A stretch of 64,000 nt of DNA, from assembly GCF_001506165.1 (NCBI RefSeq), contig NZ_CP011427.1, positions 496,001-560,000 on the forward strand, in the 5' to 3' direction. The translations under genes and the position numbers were made by a program. The notes beneath the pieces were generated by a model. It was not told where the DNA came from. It saw only the letters and a list, made by a program, of their open reading frames with translations, and did no database searches. Below, in pieces: positions 6,918 through 29,907 of this stretch. Each line of letters opens with the position of its first letter. The stretch's first letter is position 1. The DNA is from Pantoea vagans (GTDB lineage: Bacteria; Pseudomonadota; Gammaproteobacteria; Enterobacterales; Enterobacteriaceae).

Positions 6918-7457
6918 TTAGATGTAATTCAGTACGAAATTAGTCGGTACCTGGAATGTGCCAGGTACAATGGTGGCGGTTGCGCCGCCGCCCTTCACGC
7001 TGGCAGCAAAGGTCAGCGTGTTTTTGCCATCAACAACGGTTTGGCCTACTGTCGCGGTATTCAGTTTCACTTTGGAGCCGTCAGCGGCGGTCAGAACAAT
7101 AGACGCACCGCTGGCATCACCCCCTACCAGCGCCAGGCTTTCTGCATCATAAGGAGAAGCTGTGCCAGTGAAGGTCACTGTGACTTTATCTTTAGTGCCC
7201 GGCGTAGCAATAACGCAATCTTCCAGTTCAATATGGAAAGGCTTTGCACTTGAAGAACCGGTATTACCGTTTGCAGCCAGCACCACATTGGAAATAGCGC
7301 CGAGCGGAACGGTTTGATCTAATGAACCCGGAGCGATGGAGCAAGGTGCATCAATAATGGAACCGGTAAAAGTGACTTTTCCGGTTCCACCCGCAGCGTG
7401 TACAGAGGAAACAGCAAACAGGCTAAACATAGACAAGGCGATAAGACTCTTTTTCAT
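6918..7457 (-). CDS. Major fimbrial subunit (FimA/PapA-type pilin)
   Basis: A 179-residue pilin with signal peptide ending SSVHA, strand VTFTGSIIDAPCSIAPGSLDQ, partner cysteine in IELEDCVIAT, and C-terminal VPTNFVLNYI. Its low-complexity, alanine/threonine/glycine-rich composition, first position and the attenuator immediately downstream all point to the major shaft subunit. GGAAG lies eight bases before the ATG. It opens the operon that runs down to 756. Confidence 0.9.
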   Translation of the reverse strand: MKKSLIALSMFSLFAVSSVHAAGGTGKVTFTGSIIDAPCSIAPGSLDQTVPLGAISNVVLAANGNTGSSSAKPFHIELEDCVIATPGTKDKVTVTFTGTASPYDAESLALVGGDASGASIVLTAADGSKVKLNTATVGQTVVDGKNTLTFAASVKGGGATATIVPGTFQVPTNFVLNYI

Positions 7458-25226: not shown

Positions 25227-25260
25227 AAAACGGCAGCCCAATGTGGCTGCCGTTTTTTTT
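25227..25260 (+). terminator. Intrinsic terminator of the monooxygenase/transporter operon
   Basis: The 8-bp GC stem CGGCAGCC/GGCTGCCG (25231-25238 and 25245-25252) has a 6-base loop, is flanked by AAAA on its left side and runs into eight T. This is a canonical rho-independent terminator and separates the operon from the hxlR unit. Confidence 0.92.
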
Positions 25261-25280
25261 GGATAATGAACACTCCTTGC

Positions 25281-25311
25281 TTTCATTTTGCAAGTTACTT
25301 GCAAAATGAAA
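25281..25311. promoter_or_regulatory. Perfect inverted repeat, probable HxlR operator
   Basis: TTTCATTTTGCAAGT at 25281-25295 is perfectly repeated in inverse at 25297-25311 around one central base. It stands alone between the upstream terminator and the hxlR start, 50 bases before that ATG, and is not followed by a T run. A dimeric winged-helix regulator such as the adjacent HxlR protein would be expected to bind such a site. Confidence 0.7.
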
Positions 25312-25360
25312 GTGACTTTGCGACAGTATTCCGCATCCAATCTCCTGCAGAATACCTCTC

Positions 25361-25906
25361 ATGAAAAACGAACCGCTTTACCATATGCCTTGCCCTATTG
25401 CCCGCAGCTTGGGTCGCGTCGGAGATGGCTGGAGCATGCTGATCATGCGCGACGCGCTGGCTGGCTTTACCCGCTTTGACGAGTTCCAGAAAAGCAGCGG
25501 CGTTGCGCCTAACATCCTGTCGCGTCGCCTGAAAGAACTGGTGGAAGATGGTTTGCTGCAGAAGGTGTGCTATAGCACCACGCCAGCGCGTTACGAATAT
25601 CATCTGACTCACGCCGGACGTGATTTGCGCGGCGTGATTCTGGCGCTGGCCGAGTGGGGCAGCACGCACTTTTCGCCGGAAGGGCGTCAGATGCAGCTGG
25701 TGGAAACCGCCACCCAGCGCCCGGTGAAACTGCAACTGGTCGATAGCGAGAATGGCCAGCCGCTGACGCTGGATAAATACCAAATGGTGCCGGGCCCGGC
25801 AGCGGTGCCAATGATGCACTATCGCCATGACTATCTGCAGAAAAAACGCGCTGGTGATACCACGCAGAAATTCACACCGCCTGCGCTGGCAGAGAAGCAA
25901 TCATGA
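25361..25906 (+). CDS. HxlR-family transcriptional regulator
   Basis: A 181-residue protein with the HxlR winged helix (MPCPIARSLGRVGDGWSMLIMRDAL to LKELVEDGLLQKV, about residues 7-70) and a C-terminal extension of about 80 residues. HxlR proteins often repress and respond to reactive or toxic small molecules. Its stop overlaps the next ATG (ATGA), so it is the first gene of an operon with the two efflux genes and fabF, and autoregulation through 25281-25311 is likely. Confidence 0.88.
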   Translation: MKNEPLYHMPCPIARSLGRVGDGWSMLIMRDALAGFTRFDEFQKSSGVAPNILSRRLKELVEDGLLQKVCYSTTPARYEYHLTHAGRDLRGVILALAEWGSTHFSPEGRQMQLVETATQRPVKLQLVDSENGQPLTLDKYQMVPGPAAVPMMHYRHDYLQKKRAGDTTQKFTPPALAEKQS

Positions 25907-26943
25907 CACTCACGCGCAAAAAATCGGCGCTGCTGTTAGCGCTGACGCTGGGTGGTATGGCACTGGCAGGCTATGGCTATTACTGGTGGCATACGGCGCG
26001 CTTTATGCCTTCGACTGACGATGCCTACGTTGGGGCAGATATCAGCGCGATCTCGGCGAAAGTCCCAGGTTATATTCACACCCTGGCGGTGCAAGACAAC
26101 GCCAGGGTGAAAAAGGGCGATCTGCTGGTACAACTGGATAACCGGGATTATCTGGCGGCGCTGGATCAGGCGGCGGGTGAAGTCGCCGCACAGCAAGCCG
26201 CGTTAAGTGATATCGCGGCGACGCGCCAGTTACAGCTCGCCACCATTGCCGGTACGCACGCTTCATTGTTGGCGGCACAGGCGGTGACGCAGAAAACCAC
26301 CTCGGATCAACGTCGTTACAGTGCGCTGGCAAGCAGTTCCGCGGTGTCGCAACAGATTCGCGACCATGCGCAAGCGGATTACCATCAGGCCATAGCCGAA
26401 GAGAGCAAAAGCCGCGCCGATACCCGCGTTGCCGAGCGCCAGTTGCAGGTATTAGACGCACGCGAGCAGCAGGCGAAGGCGGCGTTAGTGCAAGCCCAGG
26501 CGGGACTGGCGATGGCGAAGCTCAATCTTGAGTACACGGAAATCCGCGCCCCGTTTGATGGCGTGGTCGGCAATCGTCGCGCGTGGTCAGGCTCCTATGT
26601 CAGCAGCGGTACGCAACTGCTGTCGCTGGTGCCGGCACAGGGATTGTGGGTCGATGCCAATTTCAAAGAGAGCCAGCTGGCGGATATGCGCCCCGGACAG
26701 GCGGCCCGCATTGTGGCGGATGTCTTACCCGGCCGCACGTTCAACGGCCATGTCGGCAGTTTGTCACCGGCCACCGGCTCGCGCTTTAGCATTCTTCCGG
26801 CGGAAAACGCCACGGGCAATTTCACTAAGATCGTCCAGCGCGTGCCGGTGCGTATTGTATTGGATGGCGATGCGGCTCTGCTCGGCCTGCTGCGTCCGGG
26901 TTTATCCGTCACGGTGACGGTTGATGAGAGAAACATGCGATGA
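25903..26943 (+). CDS. emrA: HlyD/EmrA-type membrane fusion protein of an efflux pump
   Basis: A 346-residue periplasmic adaptor anchored by one N-terminal helix (about residues 9-28). The lipoyl half-motifs are visible at PSTDDAYVGADISAISAKVPGYI and EIRAPFDGVVGNR, with a coiled-coil hairpin of alanine/glutamine-rich helices between them (about 80-200) and a beta-barrel after. EmrA links an EmrB-type inner-membrane pump to an outer-membrane channel. The start overlaps hxlR and the stop overlaps emrB (ATGA). The symbol denotes the family, not proven orthology. Confidence 0.88.
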   Translation: MTLTRKKSALLLALTLGGMALAGYGYYWWHTARFMPSTDDAYVGADISAISAKVPGYIHTLAVQDNARVKKGDLLVQLDNRDYLAALDQAAGEVAAQQAALSDIAATRQLQLATIAGTHASLLAAQAVTQKTTSDQRRYSALASSSAVSQQIRDHAQADYHQAIAEESKSRADTRVAERQLQVLDAREQQAKAALVQAQAGLAMAKLNLEYTEIRAPFDGVVGNRRAWSGSYVSSGTQLLSLVPAQGLWVDANFKESQLADMRPGQAARIVADVLPGRTFNGHVGSLSPATGSRFSILPAENATGNFTKIVQRVPVRIVLDGDAALLGLLRPGLSVTVTVDERNMR

Positions 26944-28496
26944 GCAGCGTGGCCGCGCCGCTGATGGCTCCGGCAGAGATGCCGGTAAGCAAGAAGGTGT
27001 TCGCCTTCGCTACCATGTGCATCGGTATGTTTATTGCCCTGCTGGATATCCAGATTGTTTCGGCATCGCTGCGGGATATTGGCGGCGGATTATCAGCCGG
27101 CGATGATGAAACCGTGTGGGTGCAAACTAGCTATCTGATCGCGGAGATCATCATTATTCCGCTCTCCGGTTGGCTGGCGAGCGTGATGTCAACGCGCTGG
27201 TTGTTTGCTGCCTCGGCCTGTGGCTTTACGCTGATGAGCCTGCTGTGCGCCTGGGCGTGGAACATCCAGAGCATGATCGCCTTCCGTGCCTTACAGGGGC
27301 TGGCGGGCGGATCGATGATCCCGCTGGTCTTCACCACCGCCTTTGCATTTTTTCACGGTAAGCAACGCGTGATTGCTGCCGCCACCGTGGGTGCACTGGC
27401 CTCGTTAGCGCCAACGCTGGGGCCAACGGTCGGCGGATGGATTACCGATAACTTAAGCTGGCACTGGCTGTTTTATATCAACATTATTCCCGGCATTTAC
27501 ATCACTATTGCCGTGCCGCTGTTGGTCAGGATCGACACGCCTAATCGCGAACTGCTGCGCGGCGCGGATTACTTCAGCATTTTGTTGTTGGCACTGTCGC
27601 TGGGGTGTCTGGAATATACGTTAGAAGAGGGCCCGCGCTGGGGCTGGTTTGACGACAGCACCATTACCACCACCGCTTGGATCGCCTTGGTGTGCGGCGT
27701 ATTCTTTGTGATCCGCACGCTTAATCATGCGAAGCCGATCATGGATCTGCGGGCGCTGAAAGATCCGGGCTTTACCCTTGGTTGCTATTTCTCGTTTATG
27801 GCGGGGGTCGGGATCTTCGCCACCATTTACCTCACGCCGCTGTTTCTCGGCCAGGTACGTGGCTTTAGCGCACTGGAGATCGGGCTGGCGATCTTCTCTA
27901 CCGGCATCTTTCAGATCTTATCGATCCCCTTCTATGCGTGGCTGGCGAATCGCGTCGATTTGCGCATTTTGCTGGCCTTTGGGCTGATGAGTTTTGGCTT
28001 GTCGATGTTTTTCTTTGTGCCCATCACCCATGACTGGGGCGCAAAAGAGCTGCTGTTTCCGCAAGCCTTTCGCGGCATGGCACAGCAGTTTGCCGTAGCG
28101 CCCACGGTCACACTGACACTCGGCAGCTTGCCGCCAGCAAGACTAAAATTAGCCTCAGGACTGTTTAATCTGATGCGCAACCTCGGCGGTGCCATCGGTA
28201 TCGCACTGTGCGGCACCGTGCTGAACGACCGTACCAATCTGCATTACAGCCGCCTCGCTGACCATCTCAACAGCGCCAGCCTGTCACTCGGTGACTATCT
28301 GCAGTCGCGTACCGCAGCCCTGATTCTCAACGGATTAAGCCCGGATGCCGCGCACACGGCGGCGCTGCAATCACTGGCTTCACTCACCCTGCGCGAAGCG
28401 CGGACGCAGGCTTTCTCGGACGCATTCTGGCTAATTATGGTCGGATTCTGTATCGCCGCGCTGCTGGTTCCCTTTATGAAAAAGCCCGCGGCTTAA
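26940..28496 (+). CDS. emrB: EmrB-type DHA2 MFS efflux pump
   Basis: A 518-residue 14-helix transporter of the drug:H+ antiporter-2 family. It shows CIGMFIALLDIQIVSASLRDI (helix 1 with conserved LDIQIV), VQTSYLIAEIIIIPLSGWLA, FRALQGLAGGSMIP, and LGPTVGGWI (motif C), which is close to EmrB and FarB. E. coli EmrAB pumps hydrophobic acids and proton uncouplers, and its overproduction gives thiolactomycin resistance. It is translationally coupled to emrA and followed 10 bases later by a fatty-acid condensing enzyme. Confidence 0.9.
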   Translation: MSSVAAPLMAPAEMPVSKKVFAFATMCIGMFIALLDIQIVSASLRDIGGGLSAGDDETVWVQTSYLIAEIIIIPLSGWLASVMSTRWLFAASACGFTLMSLLCAWAWNIQSMIAFRALQGLAGGSMIPLVFTTAFAFFHGKQRVIAAATVGALASLAPTLGPTVGGWITDNLSWHWLFYINIIPGIYITIAVPLLVRIDTPNRELLRGADYFSILLLALSLGCLEYTLEEGPRWGWFDDSTITTTAWIALVCGVFFVIRTLNHAKPIMDLRALKDPGFTLGCYFSFMAGVGIFATIYLTPLFLGQVRGFSALEIGLAIFSTGIFQILSIPFYAWLANRVDLRILLAFGLMSFGLSMFFFVPITHDWGAKELLFPQAFRGMAQQFAVAPTVTLTLGSLPPARLKLASGLFNLMRNLGGAIGIALCGTVLNDRTNLHYSRLADHLNSASLSLGDYLQSRTAALILNGLSPDAAHTAALQSLASLTLREARTQAFSDAFWLIMVGFCIAALLVPFMKKPAA

Positions 28497-28506
28497 GGAG
28501 TTATCA

Positions 28507-29769
28507 ATGAAACGTATTGTGATTACAGGTATGGGGCTGGTTTCGCCGCTTGGCTGCGGGACCGAAGCCGTATGGCAGTCACTGCTGGCCGGGAAATCCG
28601 GTATCAGCGCTTTGCCGGAAGAGATGGTGCAGGATATCAGCTGCAAAATTGCCGGGCAGGTGCCAACGCTGGAGCAAGATCCACAGCATGGTTTCGATCC
28701 CGAACGCGTGATCGCGCCGAAAGATCGCAAGAAAATGGATCGTTTTATTGAGTTTGCTTTAGTCGCGGCGCACGAGGCGCTGACGCAAGTCAACTGGTTC
28801 CCGCAGGATGAGGCGCTGCGCCAGCGTACCGCCACGGTGATCGCCACCGGAATCGGCGGCTTCAACGAAATCGCCAATGCGGTGGAAACCACCGCCAATC
28901 GCGGTCCACGTCGGCTGTCGCCCTTCACCATTCCGTCATTCCTCGCCAATCTGGCGGCGGGACATGTGTCGATTGCGCATGGTTTCCGTGGCCCAATTGG
29001 GGCGCCGGTCACGGCCTGTGCCGCGGGCGCTCAGGCGATTGGTGATGCTGCACGACTGATCCGCAGCGGAGAGGCGGATATTGCGCTGTGCGGCGGCACG
29101 GAAGCTGCAATCCATCGCGTCAGCCTGGCCGGTTTTGCCGCCGCGAAAGCGATGTCAGGTGGTTTTAACGATCGTCCTGAACAAGCATCACGACCTTTTG
29201 ACCGCGATCGTGACGGTTTCGTGATGGGGGAAGGCGCTGGCTTGCTGGTGATTGAATCACTTGAGCATGCGCAGGCGCGCGGTGCGACACCACTGGCAGA
29301 GCTTGTCGGTTACGGCACCAGCGCTGATGCTTACCACCTCACCGCCGGGCCGGAAAGCGGTGAGGGCGCTCGCCGTGCCATGGAAGCCGCGCTGGCGCAG
29401 GCGGGGATTACGCCTGCAGATGTGCAGCATATCAATGCGCACGCCACCTCCACGCCAGTAGGTGACAAAGGCGAGCTGACGGCGATCCGCACGTTGTTTG
29501 CCGGTAGTGATGTGGCGATCACCTCGACCAAATCGGCCACTGGGCATCTGCTGGGTGCGGCCGGTGGAGTCGAAGCGATCTTCTCGATCCTGGCATTGCG
29601 GGATCAGATTGCGCCACCGACCCTCAATCTGTTGCATCCCGATGAAGCCGCCGCCGGGCTGAATCTGGTGGCGTTAAAACCGCAGCCGATGACGATGCAA
29701 CATGTGCTGTCGAACGGTTTCGGTTTTGGCGGCGTGAATGCCAGTTTGCTGTTTAAAGGCTGGGGGTAG
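28507..29769 (+). CDS. fabF: Beta-ketoacyl-ACP synthase II (FabF-type), extra copy in an efflux operon
   Basis: A 420-residue condensing enzyme. The Cys-His-His triad is intact: Cys171 in TACAAGAQAIGDA, His312 in NAHATSTPVGD and His347 in STKSATGHLLGAAGG; the glycine-rich GFGFGGVNA loop is at the C-terminus. It elongates acyl-ACP with malonyl-ACP. It is not in a fab cluster and no ACP, FabG or FabD gene is near. AAGGAG precedes the ATG, in an operon with hxlR, emrA and emrB. The DISCKIAGQV and FDPERVIAPKDRKKMDRFI segments resemble alphaproteobacterial FabF more than E. coli FabF (from memory), suggesting acquisition. Inferred role: spare or inhibitor-tolerant target. Confidence 0.88.
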   Translation: MKRIVITGMGLVSPLGCGTEAVWQSLLAGKSGISALPEEMVQDISCKIAGQVPTLEQDPQHGFDPERVIAPKDRKKMDRFIEFALVAAHEALTQVNWFPQDEALRQRTATVIATGIGGFNEIANAVETTANRGPRRLSPFTIPSFLANLAAGHVSIAHGFRGPIGAPVTACAAGAQAIGDAARLIRSGEADIALCGGTEAAIHRVSLAGFAAAKAMSGGFNDRPEQASRPFDRDRDGFVMGEGAGLLVIESLEHAQARGATPLAELVGYGTSADAYHLTAGPESGEGARRAMEAALAQAGITPADVQHINAHATSTPVGDKGELTAIRTLFAGSDVAITSTKSATGHLLGAAGGVEAIFSILALRDQIAPPTLNLLHPDEAAAGLNLVALKPQPMTMQHVLSNGFGFGGVNASLLFKGWG

Positions 29770-29808: not shown

Positions 29809-29907
29809 GGTCGCCATAAATGACGACCCTACAAACACAGTAGGGTGCGCATTTATGCGCTCTAGGCCAATAACCGCACAGTACCCAATGGCGCATTTAT
29901 GCGCACC
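29809..29907. repeat. Palindromic intergenic repeat, copy 3 (compound, extra arm)
   Basis: Hairpin A at 29809-29828 has one mispair (ATGACGACC). A truncated hairpin B follows at 29844-29860 and a second B-type hairpin at 29890-29907, so the unit has three palindromes. It lies between the convergent fabF and uxuA genes and ends 9 bases from the uxuA stop. Confidence 0.78.

What the first reader, a model, noticed from the sequence alone, without database searches (positions are those of the whole stretch)
25281..29769. hxlR-emrA-emrB-fabF: a candidate efflux-plus-target-bypass operon against a fatty-acid-synthesis inhibitor
Four genes lie head to tail (two ATGA overlaps, then 10 bases) behind a single palindrome: a small-molecule-responsive HxlR regulator, an EmrAB-type pump and an extra beta-ketoacyl-ACP synthase with an intact Cys171/His312/His347 triad. 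Known facts: EmrAB overproduction protects E. coli from thiolactomycin, and FabF/FabB is the target of thiolactomycin, cerulenin and platensimycin. A pump and a spare target in one inducible operon would be a two-layer resistance module. No ACP, ketoreductase or NRPS gene is near, so it does not look like part of a biosynthetic cluster.
Basis: partly seen in the sequence, partly recalled or inferred. Interest (0 to 1): 0.8.

Follow-up and report, generated by a model that had tools for sequence, protein, structure and literature searches.

The report
Inducible spare fatty-acid enzyme plus pump
A Pantoea-like bacterium carries a small self-regulated gene set with a drug pump and a distinct spare copy of a key fatty-acid-building enzyme; relatives of that enzyme pair with changing regulators and pumps in many other bacteria, which fits, but does not yet prove, a back-up against chemicals that poison the normal enzyme.

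Summary
In detail: hxlR-emrA-emrB-fabF is a compact operon behind a perfect 33-bp palindrome. The fabF is not a copy of the housekeeping gene (46% identical). It belongs to a distinct clade (FabF2), patchily spread through Proteobacteria, with conserved changes around the active-site gate (including Pro272 to Gly) and an intact triad. Its usual partner is a regulator, HxlR or TetR: within four genes in 41 of 41 family loci and 29 of 34 other phylum loci, against 0 of 43 ordinary fabF loci. Pumps are optional: 33 of 115 loci, RND or EmrAB-type. The EmrAB version is one clade, sister to a mostly TetR-RND clade. hxlR genes share an operator, AGTnACT-N11-AGTnACT, exact once in this 4.31-Mb genome, here. 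A cysteine in HxlR is invariant. A TetR-pump-fabF2 operon was published in Pseudomonas putida (PMC8319022) as a cryptic FabB/FabF replacement, its pump called unrelated. So this is a new variant of a known operon. Best reading: an inducible bypass synthase against thiol-reactive or synthase-directed inhibitors, helped by an exchangeable pump. No inhibitor is shown; a FabF2 relative was crystallised with an inhibitor whose truncated title begins 'plat', which argues against general immunity.

The parts
25227..25256 (+). Terminator-like inverted repeat (12-nt arms, 6-nt loop, second arm ends in a T run) that separates the operon from the ABC-transporter genes upstream
   Evidence: the stricter terminator scan did not report it
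25280..25312 (.). 33-bp perfect palindrome (16-nt arms, 1-nt centre)
   Evidence: imperfect or not found in relatives
25293..25317 (.). Conserved operator AGTTACT-N11-AGTGACT (consensus AGTnACT-N11-AGTnACT), presumed HxlR binding site
   Evidence: exact at one place in the 4.31-Mb genome; 29 of 38 hxlR upstream regions have it with at most 1 mismatch, 0 of 1900 shuffles
25361..25906 (+). hxlR: HxlR/DUF24-family regulator with conserved Cys11; nearest solved structure PA1374 (4gcv)
25903..26943 (+). emrA: HlyD/EmrA-type periplasmic adaptor
26940..28496 (+). emrB: DHA2-family MFS drug exporter
28507..29769 (+). fabF2: KAS II-like beta-ketoacyl-ACP synthase of a distinct clade; triad Cys171/His312/His347; clade-typical Thr141, Gly281, Ala313, Gly404, Val410 near the active site and gate (E. 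coli FabF positions 133, 272, 304, 397, 403)

Best explanation
The operon is an inducible replacement (bypass) module for the long-chain beta-ketoacyl-ACP synthases. HxlR, holding the operator in front of its own gene, is released (or switched) when its conserved cysteine meets a thiol-reactive chemical. The cell then makes EmrAB, which exports the chemical, and FabF2, a synthase with a remodelled gate and acyl pocket that can carry the work of FabB and FabF while those are poisoned. The core unit is regulator plus FabF2; the pump is an exchangeable helper, RND in some lineages and EmrAB here. Shown here: gene order, conservation, clade, operator, conserved residues. Shown by others for a P. 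putida fabF2: repression by the operon's first gene and replacement of FabB. Inferred: that P. putida FabF2 is the same clade, that HxlR senses electrophiles, that EmrAB and FabF2 act against the same compound, and that FabF2 is less sensitive than FabB and FabF.
For: Regulator within four genes of FabF2 in 41 of 41 family loci, 29 of 34 non-family phylum loci and 31 of 36 loci, against 0 of 43 ordinary fabF loci. Two unrelated regulator families and two unrelated pump families meet the same FabF clade; on the tree the RND label needs at least 11 changes (gains or losses) and the MFS label 4. Pseudomonas oryzihabitans plasmid L198 carries an RND pump and a DHA2 pump in line with fabF2. The operator is found from Alphaproteobacteria to Enterobacterales. 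HxlR Cys11 is identical in 16 of 16 aligned and is the first residue aligned to residue 14 of HypR (4a5n; called redox regulator in its PDB title; the role of HypR Cys14 is recalled). FabF2 has Gly at position 272 and Thr at 133 in 76 of 76 rows each, against 0 of 45 comparison FabFs, and in 34 of 34 of a second set; Pro272 lines a thiolactomycin pocket of FabB (PMC10054515, passage) and is a hinge residue of the FabF gate (PMC7138838, passages). P. putida fabF2 data: PMC8319022. E. coli EmrAB gives resistance to thiolactomycin and cerulenin (PMC8277102, passage). Cerulenin is an epoxide that bonds to the synthase cysteine. PA1374, the nearest solved HxlR, is in a list of genes induced over 2-fold by a brominated furanone (PMC3447867, passage; that the furanone is an electrophile is recalled).
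Against: No pump counted within four genes in 82 of 115 loci; three of the 15 members of the EmrAB clade lack it. Burkholderia vietnamiensis FabF (4f32), 61% identical and with the same gate residues in the alignment, was crystallised with an inhibitor whose truncated title begins 'plat' (I recall platencin). In P. putida, loss of fabF2 raised resistance to ampicillin, erythromycin and carbenicillin, and loss of the pump genes did not change the fabB-deletion phenotype (PMC8319022); the passages I saw report no synthase inhibitor tested on cells. The residue signature may reflect substrate range and not inhibitor tolerance; the comparison set is mostly alphaproteobacterial. In ten Yersinia-type loci the hxlR-fabF2 pair lies next to fabA, which also fits a lipid role. 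A Stenotrophomonas FabF paired with HxlR keeps Pro272.
Confidence: 0.5

Rival explanations
1. FabF2 is a lipid-homeostasis back-up: a regulated synthase that tops up unsaturated fatty acids when FabB falls short or when unusual acyl intermediates pile up. The pump exports fatty acids or solvents, or is a bystander.
For: P. putida fabF2 replaces FabB when its TetR repressor is lost, and the authors suggest that the complexity helps the cell to cope with diverse acyl-CoA intermediates (PMC8319022). hxlR-fabF2 lies beside fabA in ten loci. Thr at position 133 is nearer the small residue of the own FabB (Val) than the Phe of the own FabF. Most loci have no pump.
Against: FabF2 is described as cryptic in P. 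putida until derepressed (PMC8319022). HxlR relatives with ligands named in PDB titles were solved with quinone, menadione, formaldehyde or diamide treatment, not lipids. Pairing with unrelated pumps needs a separate reason.
Confidence: 0.3
2. FabF2 serves a special product: with SDR reductases found beside it in some relatives it makes an unusual acyl chain, and the pump exports that product.
For: SDR genes lie within four genes in 6 of 41 family, 9 of 34 phylum and 6 of 36 loci; two of them are confirmed as short-chain dehydrogenases.
Against: I recognised no acyl carrier protein or polyketide gene among the ORFs of 22-34 kb (by eye; six of these proteins were scanned in Pfam). No SDR was labelled within four genes in the EmrAB clade. 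An SDR also stands near 36 of 43 ordinary fabF loci, so SDR presence says little.
Confidence: 0.1
3. The cluster is a hitch-hiking mobile cassette: its genes move together because plasmids and integration hot spots carry them, without one shared task.
For: 118 plasmid records hold a match at E 1e-100 or better; neighbours outside the cluster differ between lineages.
Against: Low dN/dS for all four genes, tight overlaps kept, an operator conserved across classes, and a regulator found beside FabF2 in 105 of 115 loci.
Confidence: 0.06

Closest known systems
Pseudomonas putida F1 fabF2 operon, Pput_2425-2422 (Dong et al. 2021, PMC8319022; abstract and passages seen)
   Same: Repressor gene first, two pump genes in the middle, an extra FabF last, co-transcribed; that FabF is 45.7% identical to E. 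coli FabF, the window's is 46% identical to its own housekeeping FabF
   Different: TetR there, HxlR here; pump type there not named in the passages I saw (RND in the related Pseudomonas grimontii locus L039), EmrAB here; the paper says all such clusters contain a TetR-family regulator, whereas the nearest regulator is HxlR in 57 and TetR in 48 of 115 loci here
Pseudomonas aeruginosa PA1374 (HxlR, 4gcv) and PA1373 (fabF2)
   Same: Nearest solved HxlR (48% identical); PA1373 is named fabF2 (PMC4597187 table); a P. protegens locus has HxlR divergent to FabF2 (L014)
   Different: Divergent pair without pump in L014; adjacency of PA1374 and PA1373 is inferred from their numbers
E. coli EmrAB-TolC
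   Same: DHA2 permease plus EmrA-type adaptor; exports thiolactomycin and cerulenin in E. coli (PMC8277102 passage)
   Different: Distant paralogue (nearest homologue elsewhere in this genome 32%); regulator HxlR instead of MarR-type EmrR (recalled)
HypR/YodB/HxlR redox and electrophile sensors
   Same: Same family, conserved N-terminal cysteine
   Different: C-terminal extension beyond the winged helix; ligand untested
Duplicated FabB/FabF as self-resistance in thiolactomycin-type clusters (recalled)
   Same: Spare synthase as bypass
   Different: No biosynthetic cluster recognised in 22-34 kb

Membership tests
P. putida-type fabF2 operon | Last gene is a FabF of the FabF2 clade | tested here: inconclusive
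   Window FabF is in a clade with Pseudomonas loci such as L039; the P. putida F1 protein itself was not fetched
P. putida-type fabF2 operon | First gene is a TetR-family repressor | tested here: not met
   First gene is HxlR
P. putida-type fabF2 operon | Two pump genes between regulator and fabF2 | tested here: met
   emrA, emrB
P. putida-type fabF2 operon | FabF2 can replace FabB and FabF | not testable with these tools
   Needs complementation
FabF / KAS II | TIGR03150 and PRK06333 models above cut-off; Cys-His-His triad | tested here: met
   546.3 over 493.75 and 700.7 over 525 bits; triad invariant
EmrB, DHA2 subfamily TIGR00711 | Score above 230.2 | tested here: met
   406 bits
EmrB proper (NF000391) | Score above 925 | tested here: not met
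   236.8 bits
EmrA/EmrK subfamily TIGR00998 | Score above 390.8 | tested here: not met
   262.4 bits over the full model
HxlR (PF01638) | Gathering score 20.8 | tested here: met
   76.3 bits
Electrophile-sensing HxlR regulators (HypR, YodB type) | Conserved N-terminal cysteine | tested here: met
   Cys11 identical in 16 of 16
Electrophile-sensing HxlR regulators (HypR, YodB type) | Response to quinones, diamide or similar | not testable with these tools
   Needs reporter or binding assay
Antibiotic self-resistance gene of a biosynthetic cluster | Biosynthetic genes alongside | tested here: inconclusive
   None recognised among the ORFs of 22-34 kb (by eye); the rest of the window was not examined for this

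The most novel reading that the evidence does not exclude
FabF2 is the core of a widespread, modular defence against compounds that hit beta-ketoacyl-ACP synthases: one broad-range, gate-remodelled synthase that replaces FabB and FabF together, wired to interchangeable sensors (HxlR or TetR) and interchangeable pumps (EmrAB or RND), spread by chromosomes and plasmids across Alpha-, Beta- and Gammaproteobacteria. Its frequency would mean that synthase inhibitors are a common selective pressure in soil and on plants.
Probability: 0.35. Interest if true: 0.75.

Novelty: new variant of a known kind. Interest (0 to 1): 0.52.

Why it matters
FabB and FabF are antibiotic targets. A pre-formed, inducible and partly plasmid-borne replacement synthase would be an existing route round such drugs, and the published fabF2 work reads the enzyme as a cryptic lipid gene with an unrelated pump. 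The comparative pattern gives a direct test of which reading is right, an operator to build a reporter on, and a handful of invariant or nearly invariant residues to explain.

Tried and rejected
Housekeeping fabF duplicate: rejected, 46% identity to the own FabF, separate clade. Strain-specific order: rejected. A wide HxlR regulon: not supported, one exact operator in the genome; five further places have 1 mismatch, and the reversed control pattern gave more matches than the motif, 33 against 6 a strand. Pump as the fixed partner: rejected. SDR as a diagnostic partner: dropped, since ordinary fabF loci mostly have one too. Klebsiella KpnGH as this pump: rejected, the paper gives over 90% identity to EmrAB of E. 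coli (PMC4019481, passages). KpsrMFS and the CueR paper: no bearing beyond naming PA1374 (passages). PMC8262886 lists PA1373 FabF2 among Hcp3-bound proteins (passage): not used. S. meliloti fabF2 in PMC10315480 and fabF_2 in PMC4895345: different contexts (passages). Literature listings: HxlR with fabF, 3 papers judged from titles and abstract starts; fabF/emrB/HxlR/thiolactomycin, none; six inhibitor and regulator terms, 6 papers, one of them opened at one passage; HxlR family with synthase and efflux, none; target-directed mining, 4 reviews, listing only. Kim and Choe 2013 on PA1374 was seen only as a reference-list entry.

Limits: one search kept the best 80 of at least 588 loci and is biased to near relatives; thresholds differ between (1e-150; 1e-160); the spread is patchy (3 of 369 genomes in the class draw, own genome included). 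Neighbour labels come from home-made profiles; nine representatives were confirmed in Pfam as FabA, SDR (2), TetR (3), HlyD adaptor, RND pump and outer-membrane channel; others may be missed. The tree is a quick search with one support measure and a warning about long branches. For FabB the column of position 272 held Pro in one alignment and a gap in another. Set by hand: pump 'MFS' for L006 (fused frame); pump 'none' for L129 and L166, where an EmrB-like gene lies 4 and 2 genes downstream and not in the operon, and for L136; L163 and L198, which have both pumps, count as RND. Rows dropped: L194, L153 and L196 from the tree; L035 and three other synthases of this genome (L003-L005) from the residue table; L024 from the operator count; L159-L194 were not scanned for the operator. 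L073 stayed in the count of 115 though its FabF falls outside the FabF2 clade, and it is one of the 45 comparison FabFs.
Full report
What is there. Four genes run head to tail: hxlR 25361-25906, emrA 25903-26943, emrB 26940-28496, fabF 28507-29769. Domains agree with the names. A perfect 33-bp palindrome lies at 25280-25312 and a terminator-like repeat at 25227-25256 stands between the operon and the ABC-transporter genes upstream.

The fabF is special. In the own genome (4,313,264 bases, one contig) its nearest homologues are the housekeeping FabF at 46% and FabB at 40% (names by position on the list and by recall of their sequences), plus two further synthases close together at 2.47 Mb. It scores 700.7 bits on the PRK06333 subfamily model against 554.8 on PRK07314. 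Relatives at 63% or more occur in, among others, Pantoea, Kosakonia, Yersinia, Hafnia, Pseudomonas, Bosea, Bradyrhizobium, Rhizobium, Agrobacterium and Acidovorax. A match at E 1e-150 or better is present in 41 of 295 family genomes; at 1e-160, in 3 of 369 class genomes and 38 of 398 phylum genomes, five of which, the own included, are of the own family. 118 of 72,556 plasmid records have a match at 1e-100, 103 of them at 60% identity or more, 50 of the 118 from Pantoea; one of them is a 5.4-Mb Klebsiella record that is probably a mislabelled chromosome.

Neighbours. I fetched up to 8 kb on each side of 40 further family loci and 36 others, and used the loci and four plasmid loci. Within four genes of FabF2 there is an HxlR or TetR gene in 41 of 41 family loci, 29 of 34 non-family phylum loci, 31 of 36 loci and 1 of 2 extra class loci; a pump (RND or EmrB-like) in 15, 9, 9 and 0 of these. 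The same profiles find 0 of 43 regulators and 0 of 43 pumps around ordinary fabF loci; I recall that ordinary fabF sits in a fixed fatty-acid cluster, so this control is easy. Over 115 loci the nearest regulator is HxlR in 57, TetR in 48, none in 10; the pump is RND in 21, EmrAB-type in 12, none in 82. The EmrAB form is confined to one 15-row clade (support 99), 12 rows with and 3 without the pump, sister to a 10-row clade (99) with RND in 8 rows; the two join at 98. RND beside FabF2 also appears in a rhizobial group, in divergent orientation. A Stenotrophomonas locus (L073) has an overlapping hxlR-fabF pair although its FabF is outside the FabF2 clade and keeps Pro272: the pairing may have arisen more than once. 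In Pseudomonas oryzihabitans plasmid L198 the order is TetR, RND adaptor, RND pump, oxidoreductase, DHA2 pump, fabF, TetR.

Regulation. Upstream regions of 38 hxlR genes share AGTnACT-N11-AGTnACT: 17 exact, 12 with one mismatch, 9 worse; 0 of 1900 dinucleotide shuffles reach one mismatch or fewer. The motif was derived from the same set, so the shuffle test overstates its strength, but it spans Alpha- and Gammaproteobacteria. In the own genome it is exact only at 25293-25317. HxlR Cys11 is identical in 16 of 16. The nearest structures are PA1374 (4gcv, 48%), PA1607, and HypR in reduced and oxidised forms. PA1374 was in a list of genes induced by a brominated furanone in P. aeruginosa persister cells (PMC3447867, passage). 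PA1373, named fabF2, has the value 10.86 in a table of genes raised in airway mucus secretions, and its transposon mutant a growth index of 1.48 against 2.46 (+/-0.61) for the wild type (PMC4597187, table passages).

The enzyme. Against 45 comparison FabFs, 76 FabF2 rows have invariant Thr at E. coli position 133 (0 of 45), Gly at 272 (0 of 45) and Gly at 397 (0 of 45), nearly invariant Val at 403 (75 of 76; 1 of 45) and mostly Ala at 304 (71 of 76; 2 of 45), with Cys163, His303 and His340 kept in 76 and Phe400 in 75 of 76. In 34 further loci Thr133, Gly272 and Val403 are 34 of 34, Gly397 33 of 34 and Ala304 29 of 34. Numbering is set on Cys163, recalled. Pro272 with Phe390 makes a hydrophobic pocket for a methyl group of thiolactomycin in FabB (PMC10054515, passage), and Pro272 and Pro273 are hinge residues of loop 2 of the FabF gate (PMC7138838, passages). 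These changes may alter inhibitor binding, substrate range or both. The nearest solved structure, from Burkholderia vietnamiensis, has a complex with an inhibitor whose title is cut at 'plat'; the same gate residues can be read in its alignment. So at least that inhibitor can bind a FabF2-type enzyme.

What is known. Dong et al. 2021 (PMC8319022; abstract and passages) describe in P. putida F1 an operon of a TetR repressor, two pump genes and fabF2. FabF2 is cryptic until the repressor is lost, then replaces FabB; highly expressed, it restores E. coli fabB and fabF functions. They call the pump unrelated and state that all clusters resembling it contain a TetR-family regulator. Loss of fabF2 raised resistance to ampicillin, erythromycin and carbenicillin. 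The present operon has the same plan with both the regulator and the pump exchanged. I found no paper on an HxlR-fabF unit (open-licence PubMed Central papers only).

Reading. A single synthase able to do both FabB and FabF work is what a cell needs when an inhibitor hits both. A cysteine-bearing regulator fits thiol-reactive inhibitors such as cerulenin, an epoxide that bonds to the synthase cysteine, better than thiolactomycin. The meeting of FabF2 with unrelated pumps is the main argument for defence; the rarity of pumps overall, the place beside fabA in ten loci and the P. putida data are the main arguments for lipid back-up.

Verdict. Real, conserved, and a new variant of a published operon. 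The defence reading is testable and would change how the published fabF2 operon is understood.

Noticed in passing
window 29840-29860: REP-like element GTAGGGTGCGCATTTATGCGC just downstream of fabF: 72 matches (46 forward, 26 reverse) with at most 1 mismatch in the genome, 0 for the reversed control.
   Followed up: partly
L006, about 6950-7040: In Pantoea rodasii the emrB and fabF frames run into one 943-residue ORF; sequencing error or true fusion unknown; separate intact genes exist in the window.
   Followed up: partly
L196, 3830-8263: Klebsiella pneumoniae record with hxlR and fabF frames open but emrA and emrB frames broken.
   Followed up: no
L015, L017, L131, L134, L135, L137-L140, L142: hxlR-fabF2 lies just downstream of a fabA gene (Pfam for L139, clustering for the other nine).
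   Followed up: partly
L073, 6399-8293: Stenotrophomonas hxlR overlapping a fabF that is outside the FabF2 clade: the pairing may have arisen twice.
   Followed up: no
L198: Pseudomonas oryzihabitans plasmid with RND pump, oxidoreductase, DHA2 pump and fabF2 in one row, TetR at both ends.
   Followed up: no
G000:C1:2472230-2475390: Two further ketosynthases close together in the own genome, possibly a polyene-type cluster (the guess is recall).
   Followed up: no
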